Origin: Helianthus annuus
Lineage: Eukaryota; Streptophyta; Magnoliopsida; Asterales; Asteraceae
Direction of reading: 5' to 3'
NCBI RefSeq assembly: GCF_002127325.2
Contig: NC_035436.2
Span: forward strand, 29,353,163-29,417,162
DNA: 64,000 nt
Every line of letters begins with the position of its first letter. Position 1 is the first letter of the stretch. The notes under the pieces were generated by a model. The model saw only the letters and a list, made by a program, of their open reading frames with translations, searched no databases and was not told the DNA's origin. Positions 9,060 through 42,149 of this stretch are shown here, in pieces. The translations under genes and the position numbers were made by a program.

Positions 9060-12000
9060 TGTCACACCCCGATTTTCGGTTTAGGCGGAAGCGTATGGCG
9101 AGGTGTGACGAGAGCGGCAATCGTTACAATCAATCGAGTAAACAACATATTTGAAACATAAAAGATGTTCATCCATACATTTGATTCAAAACCATAATTT
9201 ACATTACATACGTCTTGTTTGAAACTTGAAACAACAACAACTTTAACTACATTATTCAAAGTTCAAAACATAACACTAAAAACGGATGACATCACAAAAG
9301 CTTGCGTTCTTGATAACCATTTGAACATATTTTTCCATAGCCGTCCACTAATCTCCTGTAATACATGTTAATTTTGAAAACATCAACAAAAGTTGAGTGA
9401 ATTCATGTTATTTTGTTTCCGCATCAAATGAGTCTCCAAAACATTTGAAGTAATAAAATTCGTTTTTGTATAGTATGATAAAAAAAATTGTATGATCATT
9501 AGTGTGTTGCAAGGACACTAATATGTATGCCGAATAGGAGGCAACCAAACCTTGACAATTTATCGTGTGTGTCAACGACACTAGTTTGGACACAAAGGCA
9601 CTCTTGACGATCGTGGTTATCGTTGTCGTTAAGAGTGGGGCTTGCCAAAACCCAAATAGATCTATCCGTTTGTTCCTCGGTACTTGTTTATTCATTAATG
9701 GCCCCTTTATTTTAACACCTATCCGCATGTGATCAAAATAGTTTCATTGTATTATCATACTATTTGTAACATGTATACATCCCCGAAAGTTTAAAACTAT
9801 AAACATTCGGAAAACATGAACTCACAGATTTGCGTTCCGTGCAAATCTCTATTCGATTCCTTGTTCGCGGTTCGTTTCTCGACCTACAAGTGTTCTAATT
9901 TAGTTAGACACTTAGGTTTGTTTTTGTGTATGGTACAAATATTCTATCTTGTATTTTGTTTTTGTGTTTTCATATATATATATAACTTCCTTGTATATAC
10001 ACATTTATTTTATTTTATTTGTGTTTGAATGGGCTTAATTTATGTTTTAGAATTTAAGTCCATTTTGGGTATTTGGTGCTTATGGGCCTAGCCCAAATAA
10101 CTTTGTTTAAAGATATGGGTCAAGCCCAAATTAATTTATAGGAGTGGGCCTTAGCCCAAAACATTTTATAAATGTAGGCCTAGCCCAATTTAGTTTATAG
10201 TTGTGGACTTAGCCCAAATAACTTGGGTAAGAATGGGCCTAGCTCAAATTGTTTTCTAAAATATATCTAGTCCATAATAATTTGTAAATATTGGGTTTTT
10301 AGCCCAAGTATTTTGTAAAGTGGGCTTTAGCCCAATTTTGACTAAAAATACATTTTAGTCCATTGTTTTGTAAAAGTGGGCCTAGCCCAAATTTTGTTTA
10401 TGAGAAATGGGCATTAGCCCAATTTTAATTTATGGACCACTTTTTAAACTACATAATTTTTGGGCTAGTAAATAAAATAAAAAAAAATAATAATAATAGT
10501 AATACTTGTATTTTTATAAAAATCTAATTTTTTATAAAAATTGTTACTTATGCCATAGTTGAACATTTTAGTGCATAAACTTGTGTGACGGTTCGTATTT
10601 TATTCTAGTCATTTACTACTTGTCGGTTTTATTTATTCGTATCATTTATCCCGTTTGTGTTGTCCGTCATGTTTTACCATTTGCTTTGTTTGTGCCATTT
10701 TTGTTTGTCCAAAAGTCCATATAGTCCAATAGTGTCCGAATTTGTCCATTTGTGTTTTCGTGTCCAAGGATGGACATTTTATTTCGTTTTCAAGTTTATA
10801 TATATATTTTGTAATTTTTATGGATGTGTAACAATTTTGCATTTGTTCCTACTAGAACTAACATATGATGTACACATCAAAATATATAAACTTATGATAC
10901 TTGATGAATACTTTTGTAAGTACACATTTTATCCAAAAATATATACTTGTCATTTTTATTTAGAAATCTTTTTATAAAACATGGATTTATGACTTTCTCC
11001 AAAATTTGTTTAACCATGTTTAAAGACTCCAAATAATTGTTTTAGTAACAAACTTCTTTGTTTAACAACTTTTAACACATCACAAAATTTATAAAAATTT
11101 TGCCATAGTTTTGTTTGAAATATGGATTTTCCCCAAGTTTATACAAAACTTGTTTTCAAATTATTTCAATACAAAACATCATCAAGTATCAATATCAATC
11201 AAAATTTGTCAACAAAAGTAGCATGAACATGATATTGTTCTTATCTTTCCCAAAAAGGAAACTTTATTCCTTATTTTTGCCAAAAAATTGTAGAAAGAGA
11301 TTTTATGAAAAACTCTTGTTTTAGATGTCTTACAAAGTCATTTGAAGCATAAACACGTATTCAAAATGTTTACTACTAACATATTTCTTGCTTTTGATTC
11401 TTTCCAGAAATGGAAACTTTATTCAATAAATTTTCCAAAAATTTATTTTCTTGTTTTTAAACGGTTTTTCACATTTTACTAGTATGCATGTTCATCAAAA
11501 ACTCATGTTGATCACTTTGTTGATGAATCTTGGTTGATCCTACATGCATGTATGTAGATCATATTTTTGAGTAAGAATAACAAAGATTCAAGTTTATTAG
11601 CCTAGATTTCTCCAAGTTCATCTCTTAATCATAGAAAAATCATGTTTAAAAATAATGATTTTTAGTTGTTTATTGTTATTTTTCAAGTGAGTTTATGATG
11701 AACTTGTAAAAGAAATCAAAAATAAAAGTGAAGCTAGTACGATGTTCTTACAAATTTTGCAAGGAAACAAAGATGATGATAAGAAATCTTGATGATTTTA
11801 GGCTTTAAGTTCCACCAAAAGAGCTCCAACTAGCTTTTCTAAACACCCTAGTAGTTTGATTCATCCATGGACCTCCATACTTGCAATAATCTCTAGTGTT
11901 TGAATTTTGAAAATGTGAAGATGGTGGTGTGCTTGGTTCAAACGATTTTAGAGAGAGAGAGTATAGGAAGTTGTAATGTTTGATGGGTTTGGGAAAAATG

Positions 12001-13016
12001 AATGTAAAGGTAGAGTGTAAGAAAAGATTTTCTTGGATACACTAATAATAACCTCCTTGTTCCAACACACCACTTTTGAGATGAGTGGGCTTAGGTGGGG
12101 GTCCCACATCAACAAAAATCAGCCAAAAGGGAAGAATTTTTGCTTTATTTTTTTATTAAAATCTTGTTTAATTTATAATCTTTAAGCATTTTTAGAACTT
12201 TGACATTTTTTATAAAAATATCTACAAGGTTTTAAGCTCTAATATTTGAATGTAGTGTGACACTAGGTAAAATTAGTTCACCAAAATTTTTAGTTTGTAA
12301 TTCGGGTGAAAAAGTCGGTTCGGGTCCTGTACCGGCTTAAATACTGACACCGTGTTTTGTTTAGATAAATACATAACAAAAGTTATTTTTGCACATGTTT
12401 TATTATCCAAATAACTAATCCAACTTTTTAGACTAAAAATTTTATTATTTTTGGCACGGTTCCGGTACCGGCTTTACTGACTGGCAGTTTACTGAACTAG
12501 CCGTACAACTTAACGCAATAAGATTCGATTGCGGATTTTGTGTCGTTTTTAATACCCATTATATTATTTATGTCAAATAATATTTATTTTTGGGTTTTCG
12601 GACAGTTACTGTTTTGTTCTGCGGAATGCTGTACACTTCCGCATGATTGCTGTATTTTTCTGCGGACTTGGACAATTTGGTTTTTAATTGCAATTTTGTA
12701 AATAATAAGGCACATATTATTTTTGGACAAAGCTTTTTATAGAATATTTGTGTAGACATATCCGTATGTCTTGTTTTTATCGTGTCAGACTGTACCGCGA
12801 CTAGTACTGACAAGTATTGTTTAATCGCGTTCCTATTGTTAGTCTAGGATATTGTTTCCAATCGCAACGGATTTATTATCATAATTTACTATGATTTTTG
12901 TAATTCCTAGACTCTCAAGACTTTAATTAATTAAAATCAAGTCGTATACGCGAAAATAAAAATTTAAATAGTTGTTCAGGTTGTACGGAATTACCGGAAT
13001 TTTGCCGATTATCACA
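9060..13016 (-). repeat. 3' LTR of element C (3957 bp)
   Basis: It matches 42970-47247 almost throughout, apart from a 308-bp MITE present only in the other copy. It starts TGTCACACC and ends TATCACA. It contains the TGGGC/GCCCA hairpin array (10028-10440). Long AT-rich stretches hold only short chance ORFs. Confidence 0.95.
10028..10440. repeat. TGGGC-N3/4-GCCCA hairpin array in LTR of C
   Basis: About twelve copies of a roughly 30-bp unit are present. The best are TGGGCCTAGCCCA, TGGGCCTTAGCCCA, TGGGCTTTAGCCCA and TGGGCATTAGCCCA: a constant 5-bp stem with a variable 3-4 base loop. Some copies have one mismatch or a wobble. The same array is present in the other LTR at about 43949-44360. Confidence 0.8.
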
Positions 13017-17940: not shown

Positions 17941-18649
17941 GCCTTAGCAGAACAACCATCTGTTTAGGAGGGGAAAACCAAGCAGTTACCTCTATCCTTA
18001 CAGTATGTATTCCATACTCTATGGACCTTGGTCGTCCAAAGTAAGGAAAGTCCTTCGTCGCATTAACTCATGTGACGAATACATTGGTATTGTTTGAGCT
18101 CAACGAATTCCAACAAAGTTGTTATGATTTCTATAGATGTCGAATGGAATATGGCTAGAGACTTGTGCCATGGCTCGTGCCATATTACCCTTTGAGACAA
18201 AACGAATGTCAAATAATGGATTTTATCGCAATAACTCCAATAAATATGATAAGGTGTTATAGGCACCGTGAGATTAACCCAAATGTTGGAGTTTTAGAAT
18301 GTTTGAGGGAAATCCTTCCTGGATGGTTTTCCTAATCTGTTTGCTTAGGTGACTTGTCTCAACTGACTTGTGATATAGATCGGATGCTAGGCACGAAATC
18401 AATACGTGTAGTTTTTAATGTGTTGTGGGGAATCATAGTAATCACCTTAGTTAGCGTTCTAAGAAATGGAAAAATTGAATTCTTAAGTAACAATTCAAGA
18501 ATTTTGAATAGGTAGTGATCATTAGTCTGACCCGCAGGGCCCACCAGGATTCCCATCCACTGCAAGTTATTATTACATGGGCCCCCGTAATAATAAATTG
18601 CCTTGTATGGTCACCCTAGCGTTCCCTCGTTCAAAACAGACGATCAGTC
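17941..18649. other. Element C leader, left part
   Basis: This is non-coding DNA of element C upstream of the ORF remnant, cut by element D at 18649 and continued at 42150. It may include decayed N-terminal sequence of the extra ORF, but I could not read any. One strong stem-loop lies at 18567-18596. Confidence 0.5.
18567..18596. other. Stem-loop with perfect 10-bp arms
   Basis: The arms are TTATTATTAC (18567-18576) and GTAATAATAA (18587-18596), with a 10-base loop ATGGGCCCCC. It lies in the non-coding leader of element C. Confidence 0.75.
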
Positions 18650-21600
18650 TGTGACAACCCTCACTAAACCAGGTATCCGTATGACTTAATTAACTATTAA
18701 TTGTTGCCTAATTACTGTGCTTAACTGAGATTTATGATAAACTGCTACTTGATTATTGATACTTGTACATATCTGCATCATACTTTGATTTTTCTGTCAC
18801 TACATTACTTATTTACTGAACTTTAGTGACAAACATGATGCACAAAAGCACAGTAGCATTTGAACGGATAACCTATGGAACATGCTGATATAGCCAGCAT
18901 CAGGCAAACACTGCCTCTAAAGGCCTGAATGAGCCAGAAGTATTCTACTACACCCATAGAGTGTGTAGGGATACAAGGGTTGTATAATTGCGTCTCTAGG
19001 AATAAGATACAGAGATTGGATGTGCCTAAAACGTACTCTAAGCACAAAACACAGCACTTTTATCAACACACTAGCTTCTAGTTAATTAATAAAGTGCCAA
19101 AACATGGGGAAATATTCCTGACACTTTGCAGAACAAATTGTGTCGCTAAAAATATTAATTACGACGCTTAAAGGATTACTTAAGCACTTTAACGGATTAC
19201 TATCCAACCAAACAACCGGACTATACCCGGAACATAAAAATATTGCCAGAAATATTATTGGTATTTTTCTGAACCAGTTAGGGTCCCTGATTACCCTAAC
19301 ACCCGCATTATAACGCATCAAACAACTAACGGGGTTAAACTCTAAAAGTAACCGACTTAACCAAATTAAACTCTAACTGAACGATCAAGATCCAACCGGG
19401 TGACCCCACCCCCCTTTGGGCCGGTTTGGTCCCTTTGTAACTAAGGGTACACCTTTTGATTATTATAATAGATTACGTGGATATCTAGACGACATAAACC
19501 GATGGACGATAGCACTTGAATTCTCTATAAAAACCCTCCACCACACACAAGACTTCTCACACTTTCCAACCAACACCTTGCTCTCTCTCTTGCTCCCTCT
19601 CTTCTCGGCCGAGAGCACCCACAAGCCATCCATCCATTTCGGTTTTTGATCTAGCCATTCCACACTCATACAAGGCATTCGGATCACGTACGAGGAAGCT
19701 TGAAACAAGCGGAAGTTGGAGGACCACGTTCATTTGCTTTTATCCACGCCATTTTCGCCAAAGATCTTCCCTAGCCCCGAGCTAGAGGTATAACATTTAA
19801 AACTTGTTCTTGATCGTATCTAAAGTGGTTAAAAGGATTTTTAACGGTTAAAAGTCGGAAACCCATCTTTTGAATCTATAAAGTCTACTAAAACTCGAAT
19901 ATCGTTGGTTAAAAGCATATAACGCGTGTAAAAGTCGTAGTATTCGAATATGTTGGTTATTGAGACCCGATCTACGATGTGGTGGCTCTTATCATCGTTT
20001 AACCCGACTTTGTTAAGATCCCGAATCTTGACATACACTTGTTTCTTTTGTACAAGGGTTAAAAGGTGAAACTCCACCACACGGGAAACATGAACTTGTG
20101 TAAAAGTGTTTTGACATGAAAAATAGTATTTAAAACGAGCCGATCTACGTATGTACAAGTGGTACATTCGTAGAACCAAGTGTCGAGAAAATCATGTTTT
20201 ATATAAGTTGGATAACATGTTAATGAATATGATTTTTACAAACTACAAGTGTGTAAACACTTGTGAAACGAAAGATCCGACAAAATAACAATTTTTATAA
20301 AAGTTGTCGGGAAGTTGTAAAGGATGATTTGTTCTAAAAACGGGGTTTTTACAGGACTAAACTATTTTATACATAGATCCACTAAAGATAACGAGATCTA
20401 CACAATAGTTTTAGAAAAATTACAAGTTCATGTGATAATGTGATTCTACATACTAGTCTACAAGTTTGAAGTGTTGAAACTTGTTTAATGTGTTGGAAAT
20501 TGATTGGTTGATTTAAAAGAAGTGTTGAAATGATTTTGTAAAAGAAAATGATACGCTTGAAGGCGTGGCCACCTCCAGTTACAGGGGAAACTCTGGCGAA
20601 ATTTTTCTAAAATCTAACACTTAGAATTATTTACAAGTGTTAGAGTTATTTTTGAAATGTTTACAAAATATATTTCGCCATGACTTTATCACAAATATTC
20701 GGAGGTGGGATTTTCACAAAAATAAACGTGATAAATATTTATTCGATAAATATATTTTCTCACAACACTGTTTATGATTATTTTGTGAAAATATATAAAT
20801 ATTATTTTTAGAGTAAAAATAATATTTACAAACTTTGTCGAACCCAAAATAATACCAACGCCTACACGACAAACATATAAGTTACAACGGTAATTACTAT
20901 TACCACTTAATCGCCAAAACGTAACTTACGCCTTATACGGAAATATTCACGAATGCGAATATTGTCAACGTATTATTTTGGAAAGTATTATGTAAAAAGA
21001 AAATATATTATTTTTGAGAAAAATAATTATATTTTGGAATGAGAAATAAAATATATTAAGTGAGACTTAATATTGTAAACACGCATGTATTAATTCCCCC
21101 ATCCTTGGGAAGGAAAGTAAATTACCAAGTATATACACGGAACGGTTGTCTAACCGTTTCCCAAAATTAAACTATAAAGCTGAAGCACGGCCATCCGTCT
21201 AATAGAATTAGCACATGTAGGTCGTTGCGCAGCAGTTGGATATTTGGATTACTTGGTATTGTGACGCACTCACTGTGAGTTCATGTCCCCCTTTTCTCTT
21301 AACTGTTTTCAGTTTTATAAACTGCGGGGGTGAAATACATGTTACTATGATTATGAATATGTTTATACATGGTATGGTTAGCGTAAGGAGGTTTACTACT
21401 TAGATCATGTGAGTGGGTAGGCACAACTTGAGGCCATTAATCCTCGTAGTAGGACCGAGGGACAGGAGCGGTAGATCTATCTGGGTGTAGCGAGCCCAGC
21501 CCCAGGTCCAGCATAACGGACCTCGGGGTGACTTAGTGCCCGACGCATAAATCCGCTAGGTTTGAGTCATCCCTACTTGCACTTCACACATATCAATGGC

Positions 21601-22046
21601 CTTGCAAACCATTGGTGATCTCTTTTTCCTTATTTGCTACATACCAGGTTTTTGATAAAGATAACGGTTTGTTTACTCACTATCGCATGAACTCGCTCAA
21701 CATTATTGTTGATTTTTCAACTTACATGTATTTCAGGAAATTAACGATCTGGCGCGGTATGGCTTGTTTTCCGCTGCATTAGGCCCGAGGTCATCCAGGG
21801 TTCGAGGCTTGTGACTCTTTCCTGGACAAGTCACAGTCCTTGGATCATGTTTATGTTAAGTTTATATTTGTAATGTTTAGACAAATTATGGTTGTTGGGT
21901 GTTAACCCGTTAAGACAATGTTTTGGTATTTTTATTTTAATGGGTGATCTTGCATATTTTTAATTCATATAGCTTGTTATGATTAAGCTATGGTATTAAG
22001 AAGTCACACCAAATTAACCACGCTTCCGCAAAGCCAGGGTGTGACA
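18650..22046 (+). repeat. 5' LTR of element D (3397 bp)
   Basis: It is near-identical to 29498-32671 plus 41922-42144. It has TG..CA ends and a TATA box at 19525. Transcription from there would leave about 2.5 kb of R-U5, an unusually long untranslated segment. Short open frames inside (for example 18823-19047 and 19841-20179) occur in both LTRs and look like chance frames. Confidence 0.95.
19525..19533 (+). promoter_or_regulatory. TATA box of element D LTR
   Basis: CTATAAAAA is followed by a C-rich initiator-like stretch and CT repeats, as at plant transcription starts. The same site in the 3' LTR is at 30373. Start of transcription is inferred at about 19555-19560. Confidence 0.7.
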
Positions 22047-22049
22047 GCT

Positions 22050-22061
22050 TGGTATCAGAGC
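22050..22061 (+). promoter_or_regulatory. Primer binding site of element D (tRNA-iMet)
   Basis: TGGTATCAGAGC lies three bases after the 5' LTR end GTGTGACA. It sets the plus-strand orientation. Confidence 0.94.
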
Positions 22062-22210
22062 TCTGATCATAGCGAACTAGGATTCCTTCTCGAGTCTAGA
22101 CTATGATCACTAGGGCTCTCACGAAAACATTTTTTTTCTGCATACCACTTAAGTCCAGATTCAAAACGTTTTTATAAACAAATGTTGAGCATATTTTATT
22201 TAATTTTAGG

Positions 22211-22577
22211 CTCAGTCTGGGAGGCTGAGGTTCGGTCTGGGAGACTGAGGCTCAGTCTGGGAGGCCGAGGCTCGATCTAATGGATCGAGGTAGTTGTCTA
22301 GTGGGACTAGGGAGTCAGTCTGGGAGGCTGGGAGAATTTGCTAGTGGGACTAGGGAGTCAGTCTGGGAGGCTGGGAGAATTTGCTAGTGGGACTAGGGAG
22401 TCAGTCTGGGAGGCTGGGAGAGTTTGCTAGTGGGACTAGGGAGTCAGTCTGGGAGGCTGGGAAAGCTTGATAGTGGGACTAGGGAGTCAGTCTGGGAGGC
22501 TGGGAAAGTTGGCTAGTGGGACTAGGAAGGACAGTCTGGGAGGCTGGGAGGCTAGTGGGACTAGGAGGATTATGTGA
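22211..22577 (+). repeat. GGG-loop hairpin array in the leader of element D
   Basis: Two tandem systems are adjacent. First come four 20-bp units (22211-22290): CTCAGTCTGGGAGGCTGAG, TTCGGTCTGGGAGACTGAG, CTCAGTCTGGGAGGCCGAG and CTCGATCTAATGGATCGAG, each an 8-bp stem with a 3-base loop. Then come about six 43-bp units (from 22303), each with CTAGT-GGG-ACTAG and CAGTCT-GGG-AGGCTG. This makes 17 hairpins in all, 16 of them with a GGG loop. Base changes are often paired across the stem: the fourth unit swaps A4-T16/G5-C15 for G4-C16/A5-T15. This indicates selection on, or amplification of, an RNA structure in the untranslated leader, where packaging or dimerisation signals would be expected. Confidence 0.88.
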
Positions 22578-22651
22578 TTATTATTTGGTAACTTATGTGA
22601 TTACCTGATTTACTGATTATTTGTGCATACTTGTGATTGTGTTACAGACAC

Positions 22652-24331
22652 ATGGATACATCAGGCACCGGAGACTCAGATACCACTGGACCTCTACCCA
22701 TAGTGTCGGATGACATTGTGTCATCGGAGCATGAGGTGCATACCTCAGACTACACGAGTACGGATGATGTTGACTTCCAGCCGTTCGCTCTACCCGACGG
22801 CGCTGATGAGCATACTGCTGACTCCTTGCCCTTCGCTTTACCCGAGGGTGCCTATGAGCCTATTGATGGCGATCCTGCTGAGTATCTTCCCCTTGTTGTG
22901 ATTCCAGCTCCGATTCCTCTTGCTTCTTACCCAGCACACGAGCTATTACCAGACGCCGAGGCTGACGGCGACATTGACCTCTACGAGGACGAGCCTTTTG
23001 AGGACGAGGTTCCTGATGCAGCCCCTTTACCCGCTGGCGGTCTCTTGATGATTGCTGATGCCCCAGCTGGAGACTCGCCCGTCCACTCACCAGTCCCAGA
23101 CTCTTTTGAGTCTGTGGCATCTGCTCCGTCTCACGTGGTGAGCACGCAGCATTTTGTTCATGACTCGGACCCCGATCAGGCATCTTCTGCCGCCCCCATT
23201 CCGAGCTTTGTGTTCGAGCACGACGATATTGAGGATTCCGATCCCGTTTTTCCTCCAGGATTTGATCCTGACCGCGATATTGAGTATATTCCTATGGACC
23301 AGCATATAGAGGACCCTGTCGATCCTGTTGATCCCGTCGATCCTATCGATCCCTTTGATCCAGAGTTTGATTTTGACATGGCTTTTGATGACCCGGAGCC
23401 TGCCGTAGCCCCAGAGCAGGCAGCTGCTTTCGATCCTGTGCATGAGCATGACTTGGTACATGCCGACGTACCTGTTGAGCCCGTTTTGGCTGACCCGCCA
23501 GTTGGCGATCTTCCTATTGATGATGTCCCTTTGTTAGTTGCTGATCATGCTGTTGATCCTTTTGTTGACCCACCTTTGATTGCTGACGTCCCTGTTGACC
23601 ATCATGTTGATCATGTTGATCCTGTCATTGCTCCTTTTGATCCTGTACCCATTGAGCCGGAGCACGCTCTGTTTGCAGAGCATATGGATCCACCTGACGA
23701 GGAGGCTCAGCACGGTTGGATACCGGCTGACGAGGATGTTCCACCGCTTCCACCACATCACGCTGATGCACATCATACTGATTTTTCATTTCAGATCCCA
23801 CCGTTTGTACCTCCAGCAGGGCCTGGAGAGGGCTCTTCAGCCCACCCTTTTGGTCACATACCGATGCCTATGCCTTTCGTACCTCAGATGACACCTGTTC
23901 CATCTTCTGTTCATGTAGCACCGTTCGATCCCACCAGCACGCCACTGCTTTGGTCATCTTCCTCTCCGATACCACCCACTGATCCATATCATCCATTCCA
24001 TATGGGACATACCATAGAGGACGTCTTGATGTCCTTTGTCCATCAGCATGATTCCCATACACAGCGACTCCAGGAGCTCGAGAGAGCTCAGCTATCACTA
24101 GGTCCATACCATGGTCAGACATCCTCATCTTTTCAGCCTTTTCGATCATTACCCCCGGACTTTGCTGCCCGACTTTCGACTATGGAGCAGCAGATTGCAT
24201 CTGTTATTCGCACTCAGCAGCGATGGAGGAGGACTGGCTTCATTTACGCCGCTTGCTTTACGCTCACTTTCCCCCTCCTCCACCCCCATCCGCTTAGAGC
24301 TCATCGGTGCCATAGTGGTAGACGATGGTGA
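22652..24331 (+). CDS. Extra acidic Pro/Asp-rich ORF upstream of gag
   Basis: An open frame of 559 codons begins MDTSGTGDSDTTG (ATG at 22652; the in-frame codon at 22637 is TTG). The protein is very acidic and rich in Asp, Pro, Val and His, with short repeats such as DPVDPVDPVDPIDPFDP (residues about 222-238). It has no predicted membrane span or known domain. Near the C-terminus is a heptad-like stretch (QRLQELERAQL; FAARLSTMEQQIASVI). The last 36 codons look like the wrong frame. From 24223 another frame reads MEEDWLHLRRLLYAHFPPPPPPSA and stops at 24297, so a 1-base indel near 24221 is likely. It lies between the PBS and gag, flanked by hairpin arrays, and is coded on the genomic strand. 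I recall similar N-terminal segments in sunflower-family retroelement proteins but cannot check. Function is unknown. Confidence 0.75.
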   Translation: MDTSGTGDSDTTGPLPIVSDDIVSSEHEVHTSDYTSTDDVDFQPFALPDGADEHTADSLPFALPEGAYEPIDGDPAEYLPLVVIPAPIPLASYPAHELLPDAEADGDIDLYEDEPFEDEVPDAAPLPAGGLLMIADAPAGDSPVHSPVPDSFESVASAPSHVVSTQHFVHDSDPDQASSAAPIPSFVFEHDDIEDSDPVFPPGFDPDRDIEYIPMDQHIEDPVDPVDPVDPIDPFDPEFDFDMAFDDPEPAVAPEQAAAFDPVHEHDLVHADVPVEPVLADPPVGDLPIDDVPLLVADHAVDPFVDPPLIADVPVDHHVDHVDPVIAPFDPVPIEPEHALFAEHMDPPDEEAQHGWIPADEDVPPLPPHHADAHHTDFSFQIPPFVPPAGPGEGSSAHPFGHIPMPMPFVPQMTPVPSSVHVAPFDPTSTPLLWSSSSPIPPTDPYHPFHMGHTIEDVLMSFVHQHDSHTQRLQELERAQLSLGPYHGQTSSSFQPFRSLPPDFAARLSTMEQQIASVIRTQQRWRRTGFIYAACFTLTFPLLHPHPLRAHRCHSGRRW

Positions 24332-24590
24332 GACGACCGCGATTGTGACTGCACAGCCTTTTGGAGACCATCTGACGATACTGATTTTTGTTGATATTTG
24401 TTGATGTACTGGATGTATGTGACACTGATGTGATATTGTTTTTGACAAGGGTGATGTAGCCCCTATTTGATTTGTGATTGTATGATACAGTGACGTACTG
24501 ATACCCTTACCACATTATGGTCTCGATATATATAACAATCGCCGTATTCTCACCATATCTGATTCACTTGATTGCTTATTTATGTTTTGT
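24332..24590. other. Spacer after the extra ORF of element D
   Basis: This is non-coding, T- and A-rich DNA between the extra ORF and the second hairpin array. Nothing is recognised in it. Confidence 0.5.
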
Positions 24591-24728
24591 GACATGGGAT
24601 GTTGTATGTATGATATTTGCAACATGGGATGTTGGGACATGGGATGTTGTGTATATGATATTTGTGACATGGGATGTTGGGACATGGGATGTTGAGTGTG
24701 ATATATTGATAACATGAGATGTTATATG
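24591..24728 (+). repeat. Second GGG-loop hairpin array of element D
   Basis: Six copies of ACAT-GGG-ATGT are present, with longer stems in some: CAACAT-GGG-ATGTTG and, with a GAG loop, ATAACAT-GAG-ATGTTAT. They are separated by 1 to 16 bp, including the spacer TATATGATATTTG. The constant loop with changing stem is the same design as in 22211-22577, although the stems are unrelated. The array ends about 60 bp before the gag ATG. Confidence 0.82.
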
Positions 24729-24790
24729 CTATTACTATTACTATATACGTATGTTTATTATGGCCTAATCGACGTACGCATCTTTAGAAG

Positions 24791-27700
24791 ATGGCACCAA
24801 GACGACAACCTCAGCCGATGCCTACTACTCAGGACGAACTACAGCAAGTTATTGCTGCCGCCATTGCTCAATATGCTGCCTCGCAAGGAGGACCAAGCGG
24901 AAGTAGCTCGAACATTAACGGCAACCAAAATCCTCCTCATGGTAACCCTAAGTCATTAAGACATACCATGGCCTAAACGGATTCCTTTAGCAGATGCTAA
25001 TGCCGTTCCTATGATGTAATGTATGTGCAGGGTGCACCTACAAACAATTCTTGGACTGTAAGCCCATAAACTTTGACGGCACAGGTGGTGCTGTTGCTTT
25101 CGTCCGCTGGGCAGAGAAGACCGAGTCCGTACTTCGCATGAGCAAGTGCGCATTGGATCAGCAAGTCACCTACATCTCAGGGCTATTTGTGGAGGGAGCC
25201 CTATCCTGGTGGAATCTACAGGTCCAGACCCTTGGCGAAGCCGCAGCTTACGCACTGACCTGGACAGAGTTGAAAGAGCTTATGCGCAAGAAGTTTATGC
25301 GCAAGAAGTACTGTTCTCGCGCGGAAATTCAGAGGTTAGAGACCGAATTCTGGCACCTGAAGATGGAAGGTTCCAAGATAGCTGAGTATGTTCAGAGATT
25401 CCACGATTTGTCGCATGTGGTACCCTACATGGTTACACCGGAGTTCAAGAGAATTGAACGCTTCATTTGGGGATTGGCTCCTCAAATAATCACCATGGTG
25501 ACCTCTTCCAAACCAGCAACAATCACAGAAGCCATTGATCTGAGTGTGGCTCTCACCGAAGAGGCGATTCGGTGGAACAAGTTTGATGAGGTTGAGCCCA
25601 AGAAGAAGGAGACTCATGTGGAGTCATCTGGTGGTAATAAGCGAAAGTTTTCGAGTTTCAAGCAAAGCACCGGGATGGTGGTTAAAAAGGGAGAATCGAA
25701 TGCGCCAGCTCAAGATTCAGCTGGTGGTAGAAAGAAAGGGAAGGGATACATGGGTGCACACCCCAAGTGCAACTCATGCCAAAAACATCACTCTGGTCGT
25801 TGCAGCCTGAGAGTTTGTGAATCATGTGGGAAGACTGGTCATACGAAGGATTTCTGCTGGGCTAATGCTGGCCGGGGAGGCCAAGGAGGAAATGGGAATA
25901 GGAACAACCGTGGTGGTAATGGGAACCGCCCACAAGGAAATCAGGGAGGTGATGGAAACCGTGCCAATAATGCTAACCAAGCAGGCACCATGAATCGGAA
26001 CCAGGGAAACCATCAAGCTGGAAACAATGGTGGAAACGGACAGAGGCCTGGATGTTTCAACTGTGGAGATCAGGGGCATTACAAGAAGAATTGCCCAGAG
26101 TTAAACCAGGCACACGGAAGAGTGTTTAACATGGAAGCCAGGGAAGCGCGCCAGGATCCCAACGTTGTCACTGGTACGTTCCCTGTAAACCAACGCTATG
26201 CATCCGTTTTGTTTGATACTGGTGCCGATTATAGCTTCGTATCACTAGAATTTAAGAATATGCTTGGTTTAGCCGCTAGTAAGTTAGATATTCCATACTC
26301 GATCGAATTAGCGAATGGGAAGTTAGTGGAAGCTAACGAGGTGATTCGAGGTTGTGTAATCGAATTGGGAGAGCGTGAGTTCGCTCTAGATCTACTACCC
26401 GTCCAGTTGGGAAGCTTCGACGTGGTAGTAGGGATGGATTGGTTATCGAGTAACAAGGCAGAGGTAGTTTGTCACGAGAAGATTATTCGTATCCCGACCA
26501 ATGATGGTGAGACCATTGTTGTTCATGGGGAGAAGCGTGAGACGCCGTTGAGGATGATTAGCTGCCTGAAAGCGAGAAAGTGTTTGAAGAAAGGATGTGT
26601 TGCTTTTCTAGCACACATTGTGGATAAGAAGGCTGCTGAGCCGAAGATCGAAGACATCCCTGTCGTGAGGGAATACCCAGAAGTCTTTCCAGAAGACTTG
26701 CCTGGCTTGCCACCTCAAAGGCAAGTGGAGTTTCGCATCGACTTAGTTCCGGGCGCTGCGCCTGTGGCTAAGGCACCCTACAGACTTGCTCCGTCTGAGA
26801 TGCAGGAACTGTCGACACAACTTCAAGAGTTGTTAGACAAGGGTTTTATCCGACCAAGCTTCTCGCCTTGGGGAGCTCCAGTTTTGTTTGTGAAGAAGAA
26901 GGACGGTAGTTTCCGCATGTGTATTGATTACAGAGAGTTGAACAAGCTGACGATCAAGAATAGGTATCCTTTGCCAAGGATTGATGATCTATTCGACCAA
27001 CTTCAAGGTTCAAGTTTCTACTCAAAGATCGATCTTCGATCTGGATACCATCAGCTACGGATACAGGAGGAGAGTATCCCGAAAACAGCCTTCAGAACTC
27101 GATATGGACACTACGAGTTTCTCGTTATGCCGTTTGGTTTGACAAACGCACCTGCAGTGTTCATGGATTTGATGAACCGAGTTTGTAAGCCATACTTGGA
27201 TAAGTTCGTGATCGTATTCATCGATGATATTTTGATTTATTCAAAGACGAAGGCTGAGCACGAGCAGCACCTTAGAGCCATTCTGGAGCTACTAAAGAAG
27301 GAACAATTGTACGCCAAGTTCTCTAAGTGTGAGTTTTGGCTACGTGAGGTGCAATTCCTTGGGCACGTGGTGAATGGAGATGGAATCCACGTGGATCCAA
27401 CCAAGATCGAGGCGATCAAAGATTGGGAAACGCCAAAGACGCCAACCGAGATTCGGCAATTCTTGGGTTTGGCTGGCTATTATCGAAGGTTCATCGAGAA
27501 CTTTTCTAAGATCGCTCAACCGTTAACGCTCCTCACGCAAAAGGATAAGAAGTTTGATTGGGGAATCAAACAGGATGAAGCCTTTCAGACATTGAAGGAT
27601 AAGCTTTGCAACGCGCCAATCTTAGCTCTCCCGGAAGGTACCGACGATTTTGTGGTATACTGCGACGCATCGCGTCAAGGATTGGGTTGTGTGTTGATGC

Positions 27701-27945
27701 AACGCCAAAAGGTTATCGCCTATGCATCACGCCAGCTGAAGGTGCATGAAAAGAACTATACCACTCATGATTTGGAGCTAGGCGCAGTGGTTTTCGCTTT
27801 GAAGATCTGGAGACACTACCTTTATGGTACAAAGTGCACAATTTTCACAGATCACAAGAGCCTCCAGCATATATTCAACCAGAAGGAGTTGAACATGAGA
27901 TCAAGTATCATCCAGGGAAGGCGAATGTGGTCGCTGATGCCCTAA
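24791..27945 (+). pseudogene. gag-pol: Element D gag-PR-RT-RNase H polyprotein (3' end frameshifted)
   Basis: Gag starts at ATG 24791 (MAPRRQPQPMPTTQDEL..). After an apparent 89-bp intron it continues from 25031 in one frame. Domains, counted from codon 25051: Retrotrans_gag about 1-180, knuckles [14 protein letters not shown] (about 256) and [14 protein letters not shown] (about 335), protease [10 protein letters not shown] (about 386), RT with [11 protein letters not shown] and active site [11 protein letters not shown] (about 722), RNase H with [10 protein letters not shown] (about 870). No stop is found before 27943. The RNase H end is lost: after FNQKELNMR the frame shifts, because about 43 bp present in the related elements C and E are missing at 27899. 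The repeat TGAG at the junction suggests a microhomology deletion. Apart from this the polyprotein reads as functional. Confidence 0.93.
24942..25030 (+). other. Putative spliceosomal intron in gag of element D (89 bp)
   Basis: The donor is CATG|GTAACC and the acceptor GTATGTGCAG|GGTGC. The unspliced frame stops at 24974-24976. Splicing (phase 1) joins ..NPPHG to [12 protein letters not shown], in frame with the rest of gag. GCTYK is what I remember at this place in related gag proteins. There is no alternative frame link without splicing or a frameshift. Confidence 0.65.
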
Positions 27946-29462
27946 GTCGTAAAGAGAGAATCAAGCCCATAAGGGTTAGGGCTATGGAAATGATAATTCA
28001 AACCGACCTTTCCTCGCGCGTTCGTGCAGCACAGCAGGAAGCTCTCAAGGAGGGAAACCTTGAGGAAGAATATCTCCGTGGGATGGAGAAGATTTTGGTG
28101 CCAAACAGGGAAGGAACGTTGTGTTTTGAGAAAAGGATTTGGGTTCCTCTGTTTGGTGGTTTAAGAGAAGTTATCTTTGATGAAGCTCACAAGTCGCGGT
28201 ACTCTATCCACCCTGGAGCGGATAAGATGTACCAGGATCTTAAAGATTATTACTGGTGGCCTAGGATGAAGGGCGATGTTGCTATTTACGTGAGCAAATG
28301 TTTAACTTGCGCCAAGGTTAAGGCGGAATACCAGAAGCCTTCGGGACTTCTGCAGCAACCAAAAATTCCCCAGTGGAAGTGGGAAGAAATCTCCATGGAT
28401 TTTATTACGAAGTTGCCAAGAACGCCAAAAGGCCATGACACTATCTGGGTGATAGTGGATCGCTTAACGAAGTCAGCACACTTCTTACCTATCCGCGAGA
28501 AGGATAATACAAGCAAATTGGCTGAAATCTACATGAGAGAGATTGTTACACGCCATGGAGTACCTCTCTCGATTATTTCTGATAGAGACGGGATGTTCGT
28601 ATCGAGGATATGGCAATCCTTCCAGGAAGCTTTTGGCTCAAAGCTGAATATGAGCACAGCTTTTCACCCGCAGACCGACGGCCAAAGTGAGCGGACGATT
28701 CAGACGTTGGAGGACATGCTGAGAGCATGTGTGATGGATTTAGGCGGTAGCTGGGATAAGCATTTACCTCTGGTTGAATTTTCATACAACAACAACTACC
28801 ACACCAGTATTGGTGTCGCGCCATTCGAAGCGTTATATGGGCGCAAATGTAGGTCGCCGCTCTGTTGGTCTGACGCAGGTGATAGACAATTGGTAGGTCT
28901 CGATGTAGTTCAGGAAACTACAGATAAGATCGCGCAAATCCGAGATCGCATTAGTGCGGCTCGTGACCGTCAGAAGACCTACGCAGATCTGAAAAGGAAA
29001 CCTCAGGAGTTTGAGGTTGGGGATATGGTTTTATTGAAGGTATCACCCTGGAAGGGTGTGGCACGCTTTGGGAAACGTGGGAAGTTGAATCCACGCTACA
29101 TTGGTCCTTTCAAGGTTTTGGAAAGAATTGGGACCGTAGCATACAAGTTGGATCCACCTGTAGAACTGAATAATGTTCACGATACATTTCATGTATCCAA
29201 TCTGAAGAGGAGTCCAACTCAAGTTAACGTTGCCATTCCTACCGAGGAAATTCATATTGATGACACACTCCACTTCGTTGAAGAACCTGTCGAGGTCACG
29301 GATTGGAAAGTAAACAAGACCCGCCGGAGCAGTGTCAAGCTCGTCAAAGTTCGTTGGAATGCTAGACATGGTCCTGAGTTCACCTGGGAGCGTAAAGACC
29401 GAATGAAGGAGAAATACCCCCACTTATTTCCTGAGAACCCTGCTTCTACAAGTAGAATTTAA
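27897..29462 (+). pseudogene. pol: Element D integrase and chromodomain
   Basis: This is the continuation of pol in a new frame after the small deletion: [19 protein letters not shown] (end of RNase H), then the integrase zinc domain ([25 protein letters not shown]), the catalytic core ([50 protein letters not shown]), the GPY-type region ([28 protein letters not shown]) and a C-terminal chromodomain ([27 protein letters not shown]). It ends at TAA 29460-29462. This half has no internal stop. Chromodomains steer integration into heterochromatin in this clade, which fits the nesting. Confidence 0.93.
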
Positions 29463-29497: not shown

Positions 29498-32400
29498 TGT
29501 GACAACCCTCACTAAACCAGGTATCCGTACGACTTAATTAACTATTAATTGTTGCCTAATTACTGTGCTTAACTGAGATTTATGATAAACTGCTACTTGA
29601 TTATTGATACTTGTACATATCTGCATCATACTTTGATTTTTCCGTCACTACATTACTTATTTACTGAACTTTAGTGACAAACATGATGCACAAAAGCACA
29701 GTAGCATTTGAACGGATAACCTATGGAACATGCTGATATAGCCAGCATCAGGCAAACACTGCCTCTAAAGGCCTGAATGAGCCAGAAGTATTCTACTACA
29801 CCCATAGAGTGTGTAGGGATACAAGGGTTGTATAATTGCATCTCTAGGAATATGATACAGAGATTGGATGTGCCTAAAACGTACTCTAAGCACAAAACAC
29901 AGCACTTTTATCAACACACTAGCTTCTAGTTAATTAATAAAGTGCCAAAACATGGGGAAATATTCCTGACACTTTGCAGAACAAATTGTGTCGCTAAAAA
30001 TATTAATTACGACGCTTAAAGGATTACTTAAGCACTTTAACGGATTACTATCCAACCAAACAACCGGACTATACCCGGAACATAAAAATATTGCCAGAAA
30101 TATTATTGGTATTTTTCTGAGCCAGTTAGGGTCCCTGATTACCCTAACACCCGCATTATAACGCATCAAACAACTAACGGGGTTAAACTCTAAAAGTAAC
30201 CGACTTAACCAAATTAAACTCTAACTGAACGATCAAGATCCAACCGGGTGACCCCACCCCCCTTTGGGCCGGTTTGGTCCCTTTGTAACTAAGGGTACAC
30301 CTTTTGATTATTATAATAGATTACGTGGATATCTAGACGACATAAACCGATGGACGATAGCACTTGAATTCTCTATAAAAACCCTCCACCACACACAAGA
30401 CTTCTCACACTTTCCAACCAACACCTTGCTCTCTCTCTTGCTCCCTCTCTTCTCGGCCGAGAGCACCCACAAGCCATCCATCCATTTCGGTTTTTGATCT
30501 AGCCATTCCACACTCATACAAGGCATTCGGATCACGTACGAGGAAGCTTGAAACAAGCGGAAGTTGGAGGACCACGTTCATTTGCTTTTATCCACGCCAT
30601 TTTCGCCAAAGATCTTCCCTAGCCCCGAGCTAGAGGTATAACATTTAAAACTTGTTCTTGATCGTATCAAAAGTGGTTAAAAGGATTTTTAACGGTTAAA
30701 AGTCGGAAACCCATCTTTTGAATCTATAAAGTCTACTAAAACTCGAATATTGTTGGTTAAAAGCATATAACGCGTGTAAAAGTCGTAGTATTCGAATATG
30801 TTGGTTATTGAGACCCGATCTACGATGTGGTGGCTCTTATCATCGTTTAACCCGACTTTGTTAAGATCCCGAATCTTGACATACACTTGTTTCTTTTGTA
30901 CAAGGGTTAAAAGGTGAAACTCCACCACACGGGAAACATGAACTTGTGTAAAAGTGTTTTGACATGAAAAATAGTATTTAAAACGAGCCGATCTACGTAT
31001 GTACAAGTGGTACATTCGTAGAACCAAGTGTCGAGAAAATCATGTTTTATATAAGTTGGATAACATGTTAATGAATATGATTTTTACAAACTACAAGTGT
31101 GTAAACACTTGTGAAACGAAAGATCCGACAAAATAACAATTTTTATAAAAGTTGTCGGGAAGTTGTAAAGGATGATTTTTTCTAAAAACGGGGTTTTTAC
31201 AGGACTAAACTATTTTATACATAGATCCACTAAAGATAACGAGATCTACACAATAGTTTTAGAAAAATTACAAGTTCATGTGATAATGTGATTCTACATA
31301 CTAGTCTACAAGTTTGAAGTGTTGAAACTTGTTTAATGTGTTGGAAATTGATTGGTTGATTTAAAAGAAGTGTTGAAATGATTTTGTAAAAGAAAATGAT
31401 ACGCTTGAAGGCGTGGCCACCTCCAGTTACAGGGGAAACTCTGGCGAAATTTTTCTAAAATCTAACACTTAGAATTATTTACAAGTGTTAGAGTTATTTT
31501 TGAAATGTTTACAAAATATATTTCGCCATGACTTTATCACAAATATTCGGAGGTGGGATTTTCACAAAAATAAACGTGATAAATATTTATTCGATAAATA
31601 TATTTTTTCACAACACTGTTTATGATTATTTTGTGAAAATATATAAATATTATTTTTAGAGTAAAAATAATATTTACAAACTTTGTCGAACCCAAAATAA
31701 TACCAACGCCTACACGACAAACATATAAGTTACAACGGTAATTACTATTACCACTTAATCGCCAAAACGTAACTTACGCCTTATACGGAAATATTCACGA
31801 ATGCGAATATTGTCAACGTATTATTTTGGAAAGTATTATGTAAAAAGAAAATATATTATTTTTGAGAAAAATAATTATATTTTGGAATGAGAAATAAAAT
31901 ATATTAAGTGAGACTTAATATTGTAAACACGCATGTATTAATTCCCCCATCCTTGGGAAGGAAAGTAAATTACCAAGTATATACACGGAACGGTTGTCTA
32001 ACCGTTTCCCAAAATTAAACTATAAAGCTGAAGCACGGCCATCCGTCTAATAGAATTAGCACATGTAGGTCGTTGCGCAGCAGTTGGATATTTGGATTAC
32101 TTGGTATTGTGACGCACTCACTGTGAGTTCATGTCCCCCTTTTCTCTTAACTGTTTTCAGTTTTATAAACTGCGGGGGTGAAATACATGTTACTATGATT
32201 ATGAATATGTTTATACATGGTATGGTTAGCGTAAGGAGGTTTACTACTTAGATCATGTGAGTGGGTAGGCACAACTTGAGGCCATTAATCCTCGTAGTAG
32301 GACCGAGGGACAGGAGCGGTAGATCTATCTGGGTGTAGCGAGCCCAGCCCCAGGTCCAGCATAACGGACCTCGGGGTGACTTAGTGCCCGACGCATAAAT

Positions 32401-32671
32401 CCGCTAGGTTTGAGTCATCCCTACTTGCACTTCACACATATCAATGGCCTTGCAAACCATTGGTGATCTCTTTTTCCTTATTTGCTACATACCAGGTTTT
32501 TGATAAAGATAACGGTTTGTTTACTCACTATCGCATGAACTCACTCAACATTATTGTTGATTTTTCAACTTACATGTATTTCAGTAAATTAACGATCTGG
32601 CGCGGTATGGCTTGTTTTCCGCTGCATTAGGCCCGAGGTCATCCAGGGTTCGAGGCTTGTGACTCTTTCCT
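29498..32671 (+). repeat. 3' LTR of element D, first part
   Basis: These are the first 3174 bp of the 3' LTR, aligned to 18650-21823. Differences from the 5' copy are single substitutions, for example GTATCCGTATGAC versus GTATCCGTACGAC. It is cut by element E after TTCCT (32667-32671) and resumes at 41922. Confidence 0.95.
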
Positions 32672-33108
32672 TGTCACACCCCCAAAATCCCACACGCGGA
32701 GTACTACCGCTTGGAGGCGTGACATGACCAGGATCAAGCCATCAATCACATCAAACATAGTATTTAATAATCAAAAGTAGCTAATACAATTCATAAAGAT
32801 ATGACTGATGTTTCAAAACCAAACATTGTTTAAGTAGCGGAAGCATAGTAATAAAACTCTCAAATGTAGTTATGAGTTCAATTAACGTTCGCGATCCAAT
32901 TCCCACAACGACCTGCCCCCTCCTTGTGCAAGCTCCAATATGTACCTAAGGTCCTGCAAGGCATGCAGCAGATAATCAACAAACTAGTTGAGCGAGTTCA
33001 CAGTTAATAGTTTAGTTTGGGTAATAGTGCGTTTGTTCAATTAAGTTTCATATCGTATCAGTTCCATCGCGGCCTCACAGGCATGTGTGCGAAGATTAGG
33101 TTCGTTAG

Positions 33109-33261
33109 TTCGCGACCGTAGTCTTTACCGACCAGGGTGTGTGCGAAGGCAATTGATCAGTTCGCGACCATAGTCTTTACCGACCAGGGTGTGTGCGAAG
33201 GCAGTTGAGTAGTTCGTTCGCGACCATAGTCTTTACCAACCAGGGTGTGTGCGAAGGCAGT
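33109..33261. repeat. Three-copy tandem repeat in LTR of E
   Basis: Units start at 33109, 33161 and 33217 (periods 52 and 56). Each runs TTCGCGACC.TAGTCTTTACC, then ACCAGGGTGTGTGCGAAGGCA. The same array lies at 39709-39861 in the other LTR. Confidence 0.9.
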
Positions 33262-33864
33262 TCGACAAGTATCATTTAAGCATGCACAAATAATCATCCA
33301 ACCCATTCCCACCCTGGGAACCCATGCCTTGGCTGTGTGAACTCACCTTGGTTTTGCTCGGTATGCTACGTTATGCACTCACAAGTAATCAGTCAAGTCC
33401 TATTGTGTGCACGTGTAATAAATCAGTTCATGTTCGTATTAATACACAGGTAATCTATATCATAAAGCATATCACAGTCAACATCATGTATCACATACGA
33501 TAGAGTTCTTGGTTAATACGAACATGGTTATTCAGTAACACAGTTAACAAGGTCGTCATGTTTAACGAGATCAGCATGCTTAACAATATAAACATGTTTC
33601 CGCAGAACAAAACCCTAACCATGGGTACTACTTAGCACTGTTAACATAAGCACTTAACAATACTAGTCAATTGTCCGATTAAACAAACAGTTAGGGTTTA
33701 CAACTTAGCAACTTAACAACAGCTTACCTGTTTACAAATTACATACTCATGCATGCGATATTACAGTCAACAACTTATAAAACTGTCATGCACTGTGTTT
33801 GCTAAATGAATAAATGCTAGACATGCTTACATTAAATATCGGACAAGATATGGCCAATCACAAA

Positions 33865-34085
33865 AATTCGGACAAGGGAGGTTGTCCTTTACAACCTCGG
33901 ACCTAAGCTCAAATAAAAGGTCGAGCAGCCCCTCCTTAGCAAACTCGGGCCATAACACAACCCAAGAAACTCGGACCATTAAGAAGAGGGTTAGAAAATT
34001 CGGACTAGGGGTATGGGGGGGGTTAAAGCTCGGACCTGATTGTAGTTATATGAAACTCGGACCTCAGTAAGTATTAAACTCGGCA
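33865..34085. repeat. AACTCGGACC motif array in LTR of E
   Basis: Eight or so copies of (A)A(C/T)TCGGACC or close variants are spaced 20-45 bp apart. It is repeated at about 40465-40685 in the other LTR. An element-specific short motif array of this kind is also seen in elements A, F and G. Confidence 0.7.
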
Positions 34086-35316: not shown

Positions 35317-35330
35317 TCCTCCCCCCGTTG
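35317..35330 (-). promoter_or_regulatory. Polypurine tract of element E
   Basis: The minus strand reads CAACGGGGGGAGGA directly before the 3' LTR (TGTGACACCCC). Confidence 0.9.
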
Positions 35331-35402
35331 ATCTGGAATTTCGTCCCGAAATTCCGCAGTAGTAGCTTCAGCCTCAGTAGTGGTTGCATTGGTTCCGAAT
35401 AA

Positions 35403-38950: not shown

Positions 38951-39256
38951 GATCGAACAGTAAAGGTAGCATAAGTAAGAATGGTTCACGAATAGTGCGA
39001 TGACAGAAGAGTGTAAGCACGTATGTATTCTCATGCAATGACAAGTAGTGAGCAAAGTAATGTAAGCATACTACGAGCAAAGTTCTATGCAAATTCTAGC
39101 ATGTAGGCAATAAACATAAACCTTATTACCTAGGATGTCGAGTCTTGCACGTGGAGCGAAGCGTCGCTGTGGATCGTTGAGAGCACTGTTCTGGTTATAG
39201 TCTGGTTTTAATAAAAACGTTTTCCCATATTAAAACCAAGTTCTCTATAACCAATG
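38951..39256. other. Leader of element E
   Basis: About 300 bp lie between the PBS and gag on the minus strand. There is no extra ORF and no hairpin array, unlike element D. Confidence 0.7.
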
Positions 39257-39268
39257 GCTCTGATACCA
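39257..39268 (-). promoter_or_regulatory. Primer binding site of element E (tRNA-iMet)
   Basis: The minus strand reads TGGTATCAGAGC, three bases inside the 5' LTR (39272). Confidence 0.93.
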
Positions 39269-39271
39269 ATC

Positions 39272-41916: not shown

Positions 41917-41921
41917 TTCCT

Positions 41922-42144: not shown

Positions 42145-42149
42145 CAGTC

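What the first reader, a model, noticed from the sequence alone, without database searches (positions are those of the whole stretch)
22211..22577. Array of about 17 small hairpins with constant GGG loops in the untranslated leader of element D
Seen directly: four 20-bp units and about six 43-bp units fold as stem-GGG-stem. Three unrelated stems (CTCAGTCT/AGGCTGAG, CTAGT/ACTAG, CAGTCT/AGGCTG) share the same triloop. Within the 20-bp units stem changes are paired (A-T/G-C against G-C/A-T at positions 4-16 and 5-15; T-G against T-A at 6-14), which preserves structure over sequence. It lies 150 bp after the primer site, where retroelement packaging and dimerisation signals are found. Inference: a multivalent binding array for nucleocapsid, or an internal structure that acts on translation of the ORF that follows.
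Basis: partly seen in the sequence, partly recalled or inferred. Interest (0 to 1): 0.86.

Follow-up and report, generated by a model that had tools for sequence, protein, structure and literature searches.

The report
Covarying hairpin array in retrotransposon leader
The untranslated leader of a sunflower retrotransposon family carries a row of small RNA hairpins whose sequences change while their shape is kept, which points to a selected RNA device, possibly one that gathers the element's own protein onto its RNA.

Summary
At 22211-22564 lie 17 small palindromes, starting 149 bp after the primer site of a young Tekay-type Ty3/gypsy element; 16 have a GGG triloop. The array is not private: I read 78 leaders of four subfamilies in the same genome, each with 6 or more recognised hairpins in the same place; 40 of the 78 were found with the array itself as query, and 2 further loci lack it. 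In diverged subfamilies the usual loops are TAG, GAG, TGG, AGG, and stems carry compensatory changes: 21 doubly changed cells against 5.9 expected, 0 of 500 shuffles as high. Shared unit types hold 34 G-U but 3 A-C pairs, which favours plus-strand RNA; minus-strand folding scores do not. In the window's subfamily stems vary 11-fold less than linkers. So: a selected RNA hairpin array, likely. A Gag-binding/dimerisation role is inference; a translation role is the main rival, since a similar hairpin stands before gag.

The parts
18650..22046 (+). 5' LTR of element D (TGTGACA...TGTGACA); 5-bp target duplication CAGTC at 18645-18649 and 42145-42149
   Evidence: self-BLAST: 99.65% over 3174 bp to the 3' LTR; boundaries read from sequence
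22050..22061 (+). primer-binding site TGGTATCAGAGC (complement of the 3' end of initiator tRNA-Met, recalled)
   Evidence: sequence; 0 minority letters of 520 across 40 copies for 22049-22061
22065..22108 (+). hairpin next to the PBS, stem GATCATAG/CTATGATC, with the palindrome CTCGAG inside
   Evidence: fold of 22049-22150 z -3.96; two other elements of the window have different but complementary stems at the same place (read)
22211..22289 (+). four 20-bp hairpin units (22211-22229, 22231-22249, 22251-22269 with GGG loop; 22271-22289 with AAT loop)
22298..22564 (+). 43-bp tandem units: hairpins CTAGT-GGG-ACTAG starting at 22298, 22341, 22384, 22427, 22470, 22513, 22552 (13 nt each) and CAGTCT-GGG-AGGCTG starting at 22316, 22359, 22402, 22445, 22488, 22532 (15 nt each)
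   Evidence: over the whole array stems have 44 minority letters of 8226, linkers 244 of 4143, across 40 copies
22572..22651 (+). 3' part of the leader, with a splice-acceptor-like TGTTACAG (ending 22647) just before the ATG
   Evidence: acceptor-like motif found in 69 of 78 leader slices, within a few bases of an ATG in 50 of 78; use as a splice site not tested
22652..24331 (+). ORF1: additional 5' ORF, 559 aa, looks acidic and proline-rich by eye, no Pfam family
   Evidence: all named hits among the 120 listed are Helianthus
24587..24723 (+). second GGG-loop hairpin array (CAACAT-GGG-ATGTTG and variants, last unit TAACAT-GAG-ATGTTA) before gag
   Evidence: 3-15 CATGGGATG copies in 20 other copies; a single hairpin at this site in 26 of 30 loci of a diverged subfamily
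24791..25050 (+). start of gag (MAPRRQPQ...), frame broken in this copy before 25051
   Evidence: six-frame reading and protein matches
25051..27945 (+). gag (CCHC zinc knuckle), protease, reverse transcriptase, RNase H
   Evidence: Pfam
27834..29462 (+). integrase and Tf2-1-like SH3 domain
   Evidence: Pfam
29498..32671 (+). 3' LTR, first part; its end lies at 41909-42144 behind a nested insertion

Best explanation
The leader of this Tekay-type group carries a tandem array of about 6 to 18 short hairpins (stem 5-8 bp, mostly a triloop ending in G, in one group also GGG-led loops of 4-5) separated by short purine-rich linkers. Shown by comparison: the array is found in four subfamilies, unit sequences and copy number turn over, and base pairing is kept through compensatory and G-U changes. 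Concluded from this: a folded nucleic acid is what is preserved, most likely the plus-strand RNA. Inferred, not shown: it works as a multivalent landing site for the element's own Gag nucleocapsid (zinc-knuckle) domain and/or as a self-complementary zipper that pairs two genomic RNAs, so that many weak, interchangeable modules between primer site and first ORF mark the genomic RNA for packaging. Redundancy of modules would explain why copy number drifts while each module stays foldable. The number below is for the array as described with this function as its leading reading.
For: Array in 40 of 40 scored copies and in 28 of 30, 9 of 9 and 10 of 10 loci fetched from three other groups. Covariation on 38 recurrent units: 93.4% of cells paired vs 88.4 sd 0.7 shuffled (0/500), 21 cells changed on both sides vs 5.9 sd 2.1 (0/500), score 0.386 vs 0.278 sd 0.016 (0/500), slid versions 0.07-0.16; double changes at four stem positions. 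Permutation over the 46 types shared by two or more of 78 leaders: Watson-Crick 142 vs 110.3 sd 4.0 (max 126 of 5000), A-C 3 vs 17.8 sd 1.9 (min 10), G-U 34 vs 50.9; 3 A-C of 37 against the permuted share, binomial 0.006. Minority letters: stems 44/8226, linkers 244/4143, 3' flank 140/2898, 5' flank 74/5191. Loops end in G in 611 of 617 occurrences, linkers are 79-87% purine. The Gag of a retrovirus, MMTV, needs single-stranded purines (GGAG and AG) in its leader (PMC8096270, passages). Gag has a CCHC knuckle. A two-unit RNA is predicted at -58.5 as dimer against -26.1 for each monomer.
Against: No binding or packaging datum. In the close set of 40 there is no double change among 4108 pair cells; 26 single changes break a pair, 13 give G-U, 1 stays Watson-Crick. 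In one search two of five measures do not stand out (pairs with a change on both sides 54/500; further pair types 351/500). Strand: in the six diverged leaders tested the minus strand has the more extreme local-fold z (for example -6.3 against -3.8 in L108), although its absolute energy is weaker; G-U to A-C in shared types (34:3) does not differ significantly from types seen once (52:15, Fisher p 0.10). In 13 of 15 leaders fewer than half the pairs of the unconstrained fold are local. Units within an array are paralogues, so events are fewer than cells. A hairpin of the same style stands before gag, which a leader packaging signal alone does not predict. The 818-nt leader part of another LTR element in the window has no array (local z -1.0).
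Confidence: 0.43

Rival explanations
1. The hairpins control translation (or splicing) of the two ORFs: a structured stretch before ORF1 and a similar one before gag slow, shunt or admit ribosomes, or set the ratio of spliced to unspliced RNA.
For: Hairpins of the same style stand before both start codons: the leader array, and a hairpin 92-101 nt (start to start) before the gag ATG in the 15 loci where both were recognised, present in 26 of 30 loci of a diverged subfamily and multiplied to 3-15 copies in this one. An acceptor-like TTACAG lies within a few bases of an ATG in 50 of 78 leaders.
Against: No initiation or splicing signal was tested; a donor-like motif fits only 42 of 78 leaders; the inter-ORF array of this copy is not unusually stable (z -0.9 for the window at 24575).
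Confidence: 0.25
2. DNA-level minisatellite: palindromes arise and are made perfect by templated correction or template switching during reverse transcription or replication, with no function.
For: Arrays are tandem and vary in copy number; tandem repeats in non-coding parts of plant LTR elements are known (PMC6317226, passages). The minus strand also folds better than its shuffles. G-U to A-C in shared against single types is not significantly different.
Against: Correction should treat G-T and A-C alike, but shared types hold 34 G-U to 3 A-C where permutation expects 50.9 and 17.8; a T-G pair is kept in nearly all CAGTCT units of this subfamily although perfecting would remove it; stems vary less than linkers and flanks.
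Confidence: 0.15
3. G-quadruplex array: the repeated GGG tracts, not the stems, are selected.
For: 27 runs of three or more G in the array and 5 motifs if loops up to 12 are allowed; quadruplex motifs are known in plant LTR elements (PMC3902901, abstract and passages).
Against: No motif with loops of 1-7 in the window's array and at most one in each of four diverged leaders. GGG loops are replaced by TAG in one subfamily while stems are kept.
Confidence: 0.04
4. Processing or silencing decoy: the structured array feeds or blocks host small-RNA enzymes.
For: Dense hairpins in the leader; no direct evidence.
Against: Stems of 5-8 bp are far shorter than known plant Dicer substrates (recalled); nothing tested here.
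Confidence: 0.04

Closest known systems
Retroviral leader packaging/dimerisation domain (psi, DIS; MMTV single-stranded purines, HIV-1 SL1-SL4)
   Same: Place between PBS and first ORF; hairpins with exposed purines; a palindrome-bearing hairpin next to the PBS.
   Different: Psi is described as four stem-loops SL1 to SL4 (PMC3902901, passage); here 6-18 related modules in tandem with turnover. Binding untested.
BARE1/BARE2 RNA with dimerisation and packaging signals (barley, Ty1/copia)
   Same: Plant LTR element for which conserved dimerisation and packaging signals are stated (PMC3735527, passages).
   Different: Copia superfamily; no hairpin array in the passages seen.
Tekay (Del) chromoviruses of sunflower with a 5' additional ORF (PMC11728184)
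   Same: Same host genus and a 5' ORF before gag (passages).
   Different: That paper reports a 402-aa 5' ORF in its group 2; ORF1 here is 559 aa and whether they are the same was not tested. 'UTR' and 'hairpin' occur 0 times in its main text.
Tandem repeats in non-coding regions of plant Ty3/gypsy elements (PMC6317226)
   Same: Tandem, non-coding, in LTR elements (passage).
   Different: Here the unit folds and covaries; that paper's passages do not speak of folding.
Ty1/Ty3 genomic RNA packaging (PMC4974528)
   Same: Cis signals near the 5' end of Ty1 RNA; one CCHC finger in Ty3 nucleocapsid (passages).
   Different: Packaging sequences are called not precisely defined there and the structure of Ty3 RNA uncharacterised.

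Membership tests
Tekay/Del-type Ty3/gypsy chromovirus | 5-bp target duplication, TG...CA LTRs, tRNA-Met-type PBS | tested here: met
   tRNA assignment recalled
Tekay/Del-type Ty3/gypsy chromovirus | gag-PR-RT-RH-INT order of Ty3/gypsy | tested here: met
   Pfam
Tekay/Del-type Ty3/gypsy chromovirus | C-terminal chromodomain | tested here: inconclusive
   No Pfam chromodomain hit in P0002; sunflower Tekay chromodomains differ from those of other species (PMC11728184)
Tekay/Del-type Ty3/gypsy chromovirus | position in an RT/INT tree | not tested
   the lineage name rests on organisation, host and recall
Leader packaging/dimerisation domain | lies between PBS and first ORF of the genomic RNA | tested here: met
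   that the stretch is transcribed follows from its place, not tested
Leader packaging/dimerisation domain | conserved secondary structure | tested here: met
Leader packaging/dimerisation domain | binds cognate Gag/nucleocapsid | not testable with these tools
   needs protein and RNA
Leader packaging/dimerisation domain | needed for packaging or dimer formation | not testable with these tools
   needs particles
G-quadruplex array | four G3 tracts with loops 1-7 | tested here: not met
   none in the window array
Neutral minisatellite | tandem units with copy-number variation | tested here: met
Neutral minisatellite | no constraint on particular positions | tested here: not met
   stems 0.53%, linkers 5.9% minority letters; covariation
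A described Rfam family | match at gathering score | tested here: not met
   21800-25100: one sub-threshold match, sR30, 16.5 bits against 38, inside ORF1

The most novel reading that the evidence does not exclude
A new kind of RNA recognition domain: a birth-and-death array of interchangeable hairpin modules whose type (GGG, TAG or GAG loop, own stem) diverges with the subfamily and serves as a self-recognition code, so that each family's Gag or RNA dimer prefers its own RNA among many co-resident related elements; the hairpins before gag extend the same code.
Probability: 0.2. Interest if true: 0.86.

Novelty: new variant of a known kind. Interest (0 to 1): 0.66.

Why it matters
How plant LTR retrotransposons select and pair their genomic RNA is little known; even for yeast Ty elements the packaging sequences are described as not precisely defined (PMC4974528, passage). 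A covarying, redundant hairpin array gives a compact, testable cis-element in an element group with thousands of first-look candidates in a 3-Gb crop genome (3979 to 14145 per search; not confirmed copies), and a natural library of module variants for binding studies. It would also be a tandem repeat kept by selection on RNA structure rather than by drift.

Tried and rejected
Virus collections: pattern CAGTCTGGGAGGCTG gave 43 stretches with one match each, which I did not examine further and take as chance; no relative of the gag-pol piece was confirmed. Rfam: nothing at threshold. Thermodynamic z-scores as proof: rejected, since an LTR window scores lower. G-quadruplex: rejected as main reading. 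My first back-translation of the N-terminus of P0120 was wrong in detail; the genome gave TAG loops. Constant GGG loop as the conserved feature: rejected. Selection of rows: one search scored 40 of 3979 first-look candidates with a query that contains the array, so that set favours copies with an array of like length; (81, 78 and 78 candidates scored) 30, 9 and 10 loci were fetched. 11 of the 30 P0120-group loci were not extracted by the script and are not in the pooled counts; 9 of these 11 have the array, L124 and L126 have none and no primer-site match upstream (two loci with an array, L105 and L121, also fail that primer-site pattern). Hairpins with loops of 4-5 and CTAGT-type units are not in the covariation tests, which are anchored on YCTNNNAGR. 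An earlier test also held off-register sites: 254 of 340 pairs against 216.6 sd 5.2, and 187 of 250 against 156.6 sd 5.4. Counts may be lower bounds for L092 and L099, whose fetched stretch seems to end inside the array.

Full report
What is there. The window comes from a 3.01-Gb genome; the closest listed relatives of the element's proteins are from Helianthus annuus and other Helianthus. Element D has a 5' LTR at 18650-22046, a 5-bp target duplication CAGTC, a primer site TGGTATCAGAGC at 22050-22061, ORF1 at 22652-24331 (no Pfam family), a gag that starts at 24791 and is broken in this copy, and pol to 29462; its 3' LTR is split by a nested insertion. The LTRs are 99.65% identical over 3174 bp, so the copy is young. 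Ty3/gypsy by Pfam; 'Tekay-type' from organisation, host and recall, no tree was made.

The array. Seventeen palindromes lie at 22211-22564: four of the 20-bp type, seven CTAGT-GGG-ACTAG and six CAGTCT-GGG-AGGCTG. The minimum-energy fold is largely a rod across units (-145.8 kcal/mol); with local pairs only it is -100.3 against -67.1 sd 6.7 for shuffles. Folding energy is not unique within the element.

Family-wide. A search of the own genome with the leader scored 40 copies of 3979 candidates; all 40 match along the array, with 5-7 CTAGTGGGACTAG and 5-8 AGTCTGGGAG each. Minority letters: stems 44 of 8226, loops 21 of 2036, linkers 244 of 4143, 5' flank 74 of 5191, 3' flank 140 of 2898, primer site 0 of 520. 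The stems are thus the most constant part outside the primer site, while linkers drift. In this close set there is no double change; the single changes look mostly like decay after insertion (inference).

Diverged subfamilies. P0120, whose best alignment to ORF1 of D is 40% identical, led to 30 fetched loci. Their leaders carry an array in the same place with loop TAG or GAG: for example CAGTCT-TAG-AGACTG, CAGCCT-TAG-AGGCTG, CAATCT-TAG-AGATTG, TTGGTCT-TAG-AGACCAG; 28 of 30 have at least six paired units. Nine leaders of the P0025 group and ten of the P0062 group carry mosaics of further types; in the P0062 group some hairpins have GGG-led loops of 4 or 5. Counting A-type, CTAGT-type and GGG-led hairpins, each of the 78 leaders holds at least six. 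Unit type and number change; foldability stays.

Tests. Units were found by the anchor YCTNNNAGR, which fixes the two inner pairs and limits the third, and the outer pairs were tested. On 38 recurrent units the tool gives 93.4% of cells paired (shuffled 88.4 sd 0.7), 21 cells changed on both sides (5.9 sd 2.1) and covariation 0.386 (0.278 sd 0.016), each reached by 0 of 500 shuffles; two other measures do not stand out (54/500 and 351/500); sliding the partner drops the score to 0.07-0.16. Over 78 leaders (40 D, 19 P0120, 9 P0025, 10 P0062), 617 occurrences and 123 distinct units, the 46 types found in two or more leaders hold 142 Watson-Crick, 34 G-U, 3 A-C and 5 other pairs at positions 4-7; permutation expects 110.3, 50.9, 17.8 and 5. 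The 77 types found in one leader hold 211, 52, 15 and 30. Units are paralogues, so this is strong but not a phylogenetic test.

Which strand. The lack of A-C against G-U (binomial 0.006 against the permuted share) favours the plus strand, that is, the RNA. Two results do not: the contrast between shared and single types is not significant (Fisher p 0.10), and the local-fold z of the six diverged leaders tested is more extreme on the minus strand, where shuffles fold poorly; absolute energies are lower on the plus strand.

Loops and linkers. Of 617 occurrences the loops are GGG 380, TAG 145, GAG 59, AAG 9, AGG 9, TGG 6, others 9; 611 end in G. The many close D copies dominate the GGG count. Linkers are short and 79-87% purine. 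Unpaired purines with G are what the MMTV Gag needs (PMC8096270, passages).

A second site. Before gag lies another GGG-loop array (24587-24723), with 3-15 CATGGGATG copies in 20 other copies. In the diverged subfamily a single hairpin stands there in 26 of 30 loci, in 23 of them exactly ATAACAT-GNG-ATGTTAT, 92-101 nt (start to start) before the gag ATG in the 15 loci where both were recognised. This fits a signal in unspliced RNA, but also a translation role, and is the main reason for not raising the packaging reading further.

Mechanism. Shown: an inherited, structure-preserving array in the leader. Inferred: multivalent Gag binding and RNA pairing. Because each module is self-complementary, the same covariation would arise from pairing within one RNA or between two copies of it; a two-unit RNA is predicted at -58.5 as dimer against -26.1 for each monomer. 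In 13 of 15 leaders fewer than half the pairs of the unconstrained fold are local; but a cross-unit rod would not by itself require each module's own arms to match in arrays of unlike modules, so local hairpins or module-to-module dimers are favoured as the selected form (inference).

Literature. Nine paper searches listed, by title and start of abstract, no description of such an array; only the held open library was searched. Papers were seen as passages: PMC6317226, PMC11728184, PMC3902901, PMC3735527, PMC10578108, PMC4974528, PMC8096270. PMC11728184 reports the 5' ORF of sunflower Tekay elements but has no 'UTR' or 'hairpin' in its main text.

Noticed in passing
window 22065-22108 (+), near 42965 (-), near 39268 (-): Right after the PBS, three elements of the window have a hairpin with different but complementary 8-bp stems: GATCATAG/CTATGATC, AATTGTAG/CTACAATT, GGTTATAG/CTATAACC (read). 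In D it holds the palindrome CTCGAG, present in 60 of 78 leaders: a candidate dimer initiation site.
   Followed up: partly
window 24587-24723: Second GGG-loop hairpin array before gag, 3 to 15 copies in 20 other elements, a single hairpin in 26 of 30 loci of a diverged subfamily.
   Followed up: partly
window 22588-22647: Donor-like GTAACT and acceptor-like TGTTACAG frame 60 nt just before the ORF1 ATG. Acceptor-like motif in 69 of 78 leader slices, near an ATG in 50; donor-like motif in 42 of 78. Possible short leader intron.
   Followed up: partly
proteins P0007, P0012, P0243-P0247: A sunflower gene model named as a sterol transport protein (NPC2) runs into the end of the hairpin array and ORF1; P0012 and P0243-P0247 contain translated hairpin arrays.
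   Followed up: partly
window 9060-12505 and 42970-46736: D seems to be inserted into the internal region of another LTR element on the minus strand (repeat pairs, PBS near 42965); the 818-nt leader part tested has no hairpin array (local fold z -1.0).
   Followed up: partly
window about 32672-41908: The 3' LTR of D is interrupted by a nested insertion with its own PBS on the minus strand (near 39268).
   Followed up: no
window 19175-19324: The strongest local folding found in element D (z -5.0, plus strand) lies in the LTR; not explained.
   Followed up: no
window 24791-25051: The gag frame of this copy is broken between its start and 25051; ORF1 is open.
   Followed up: no
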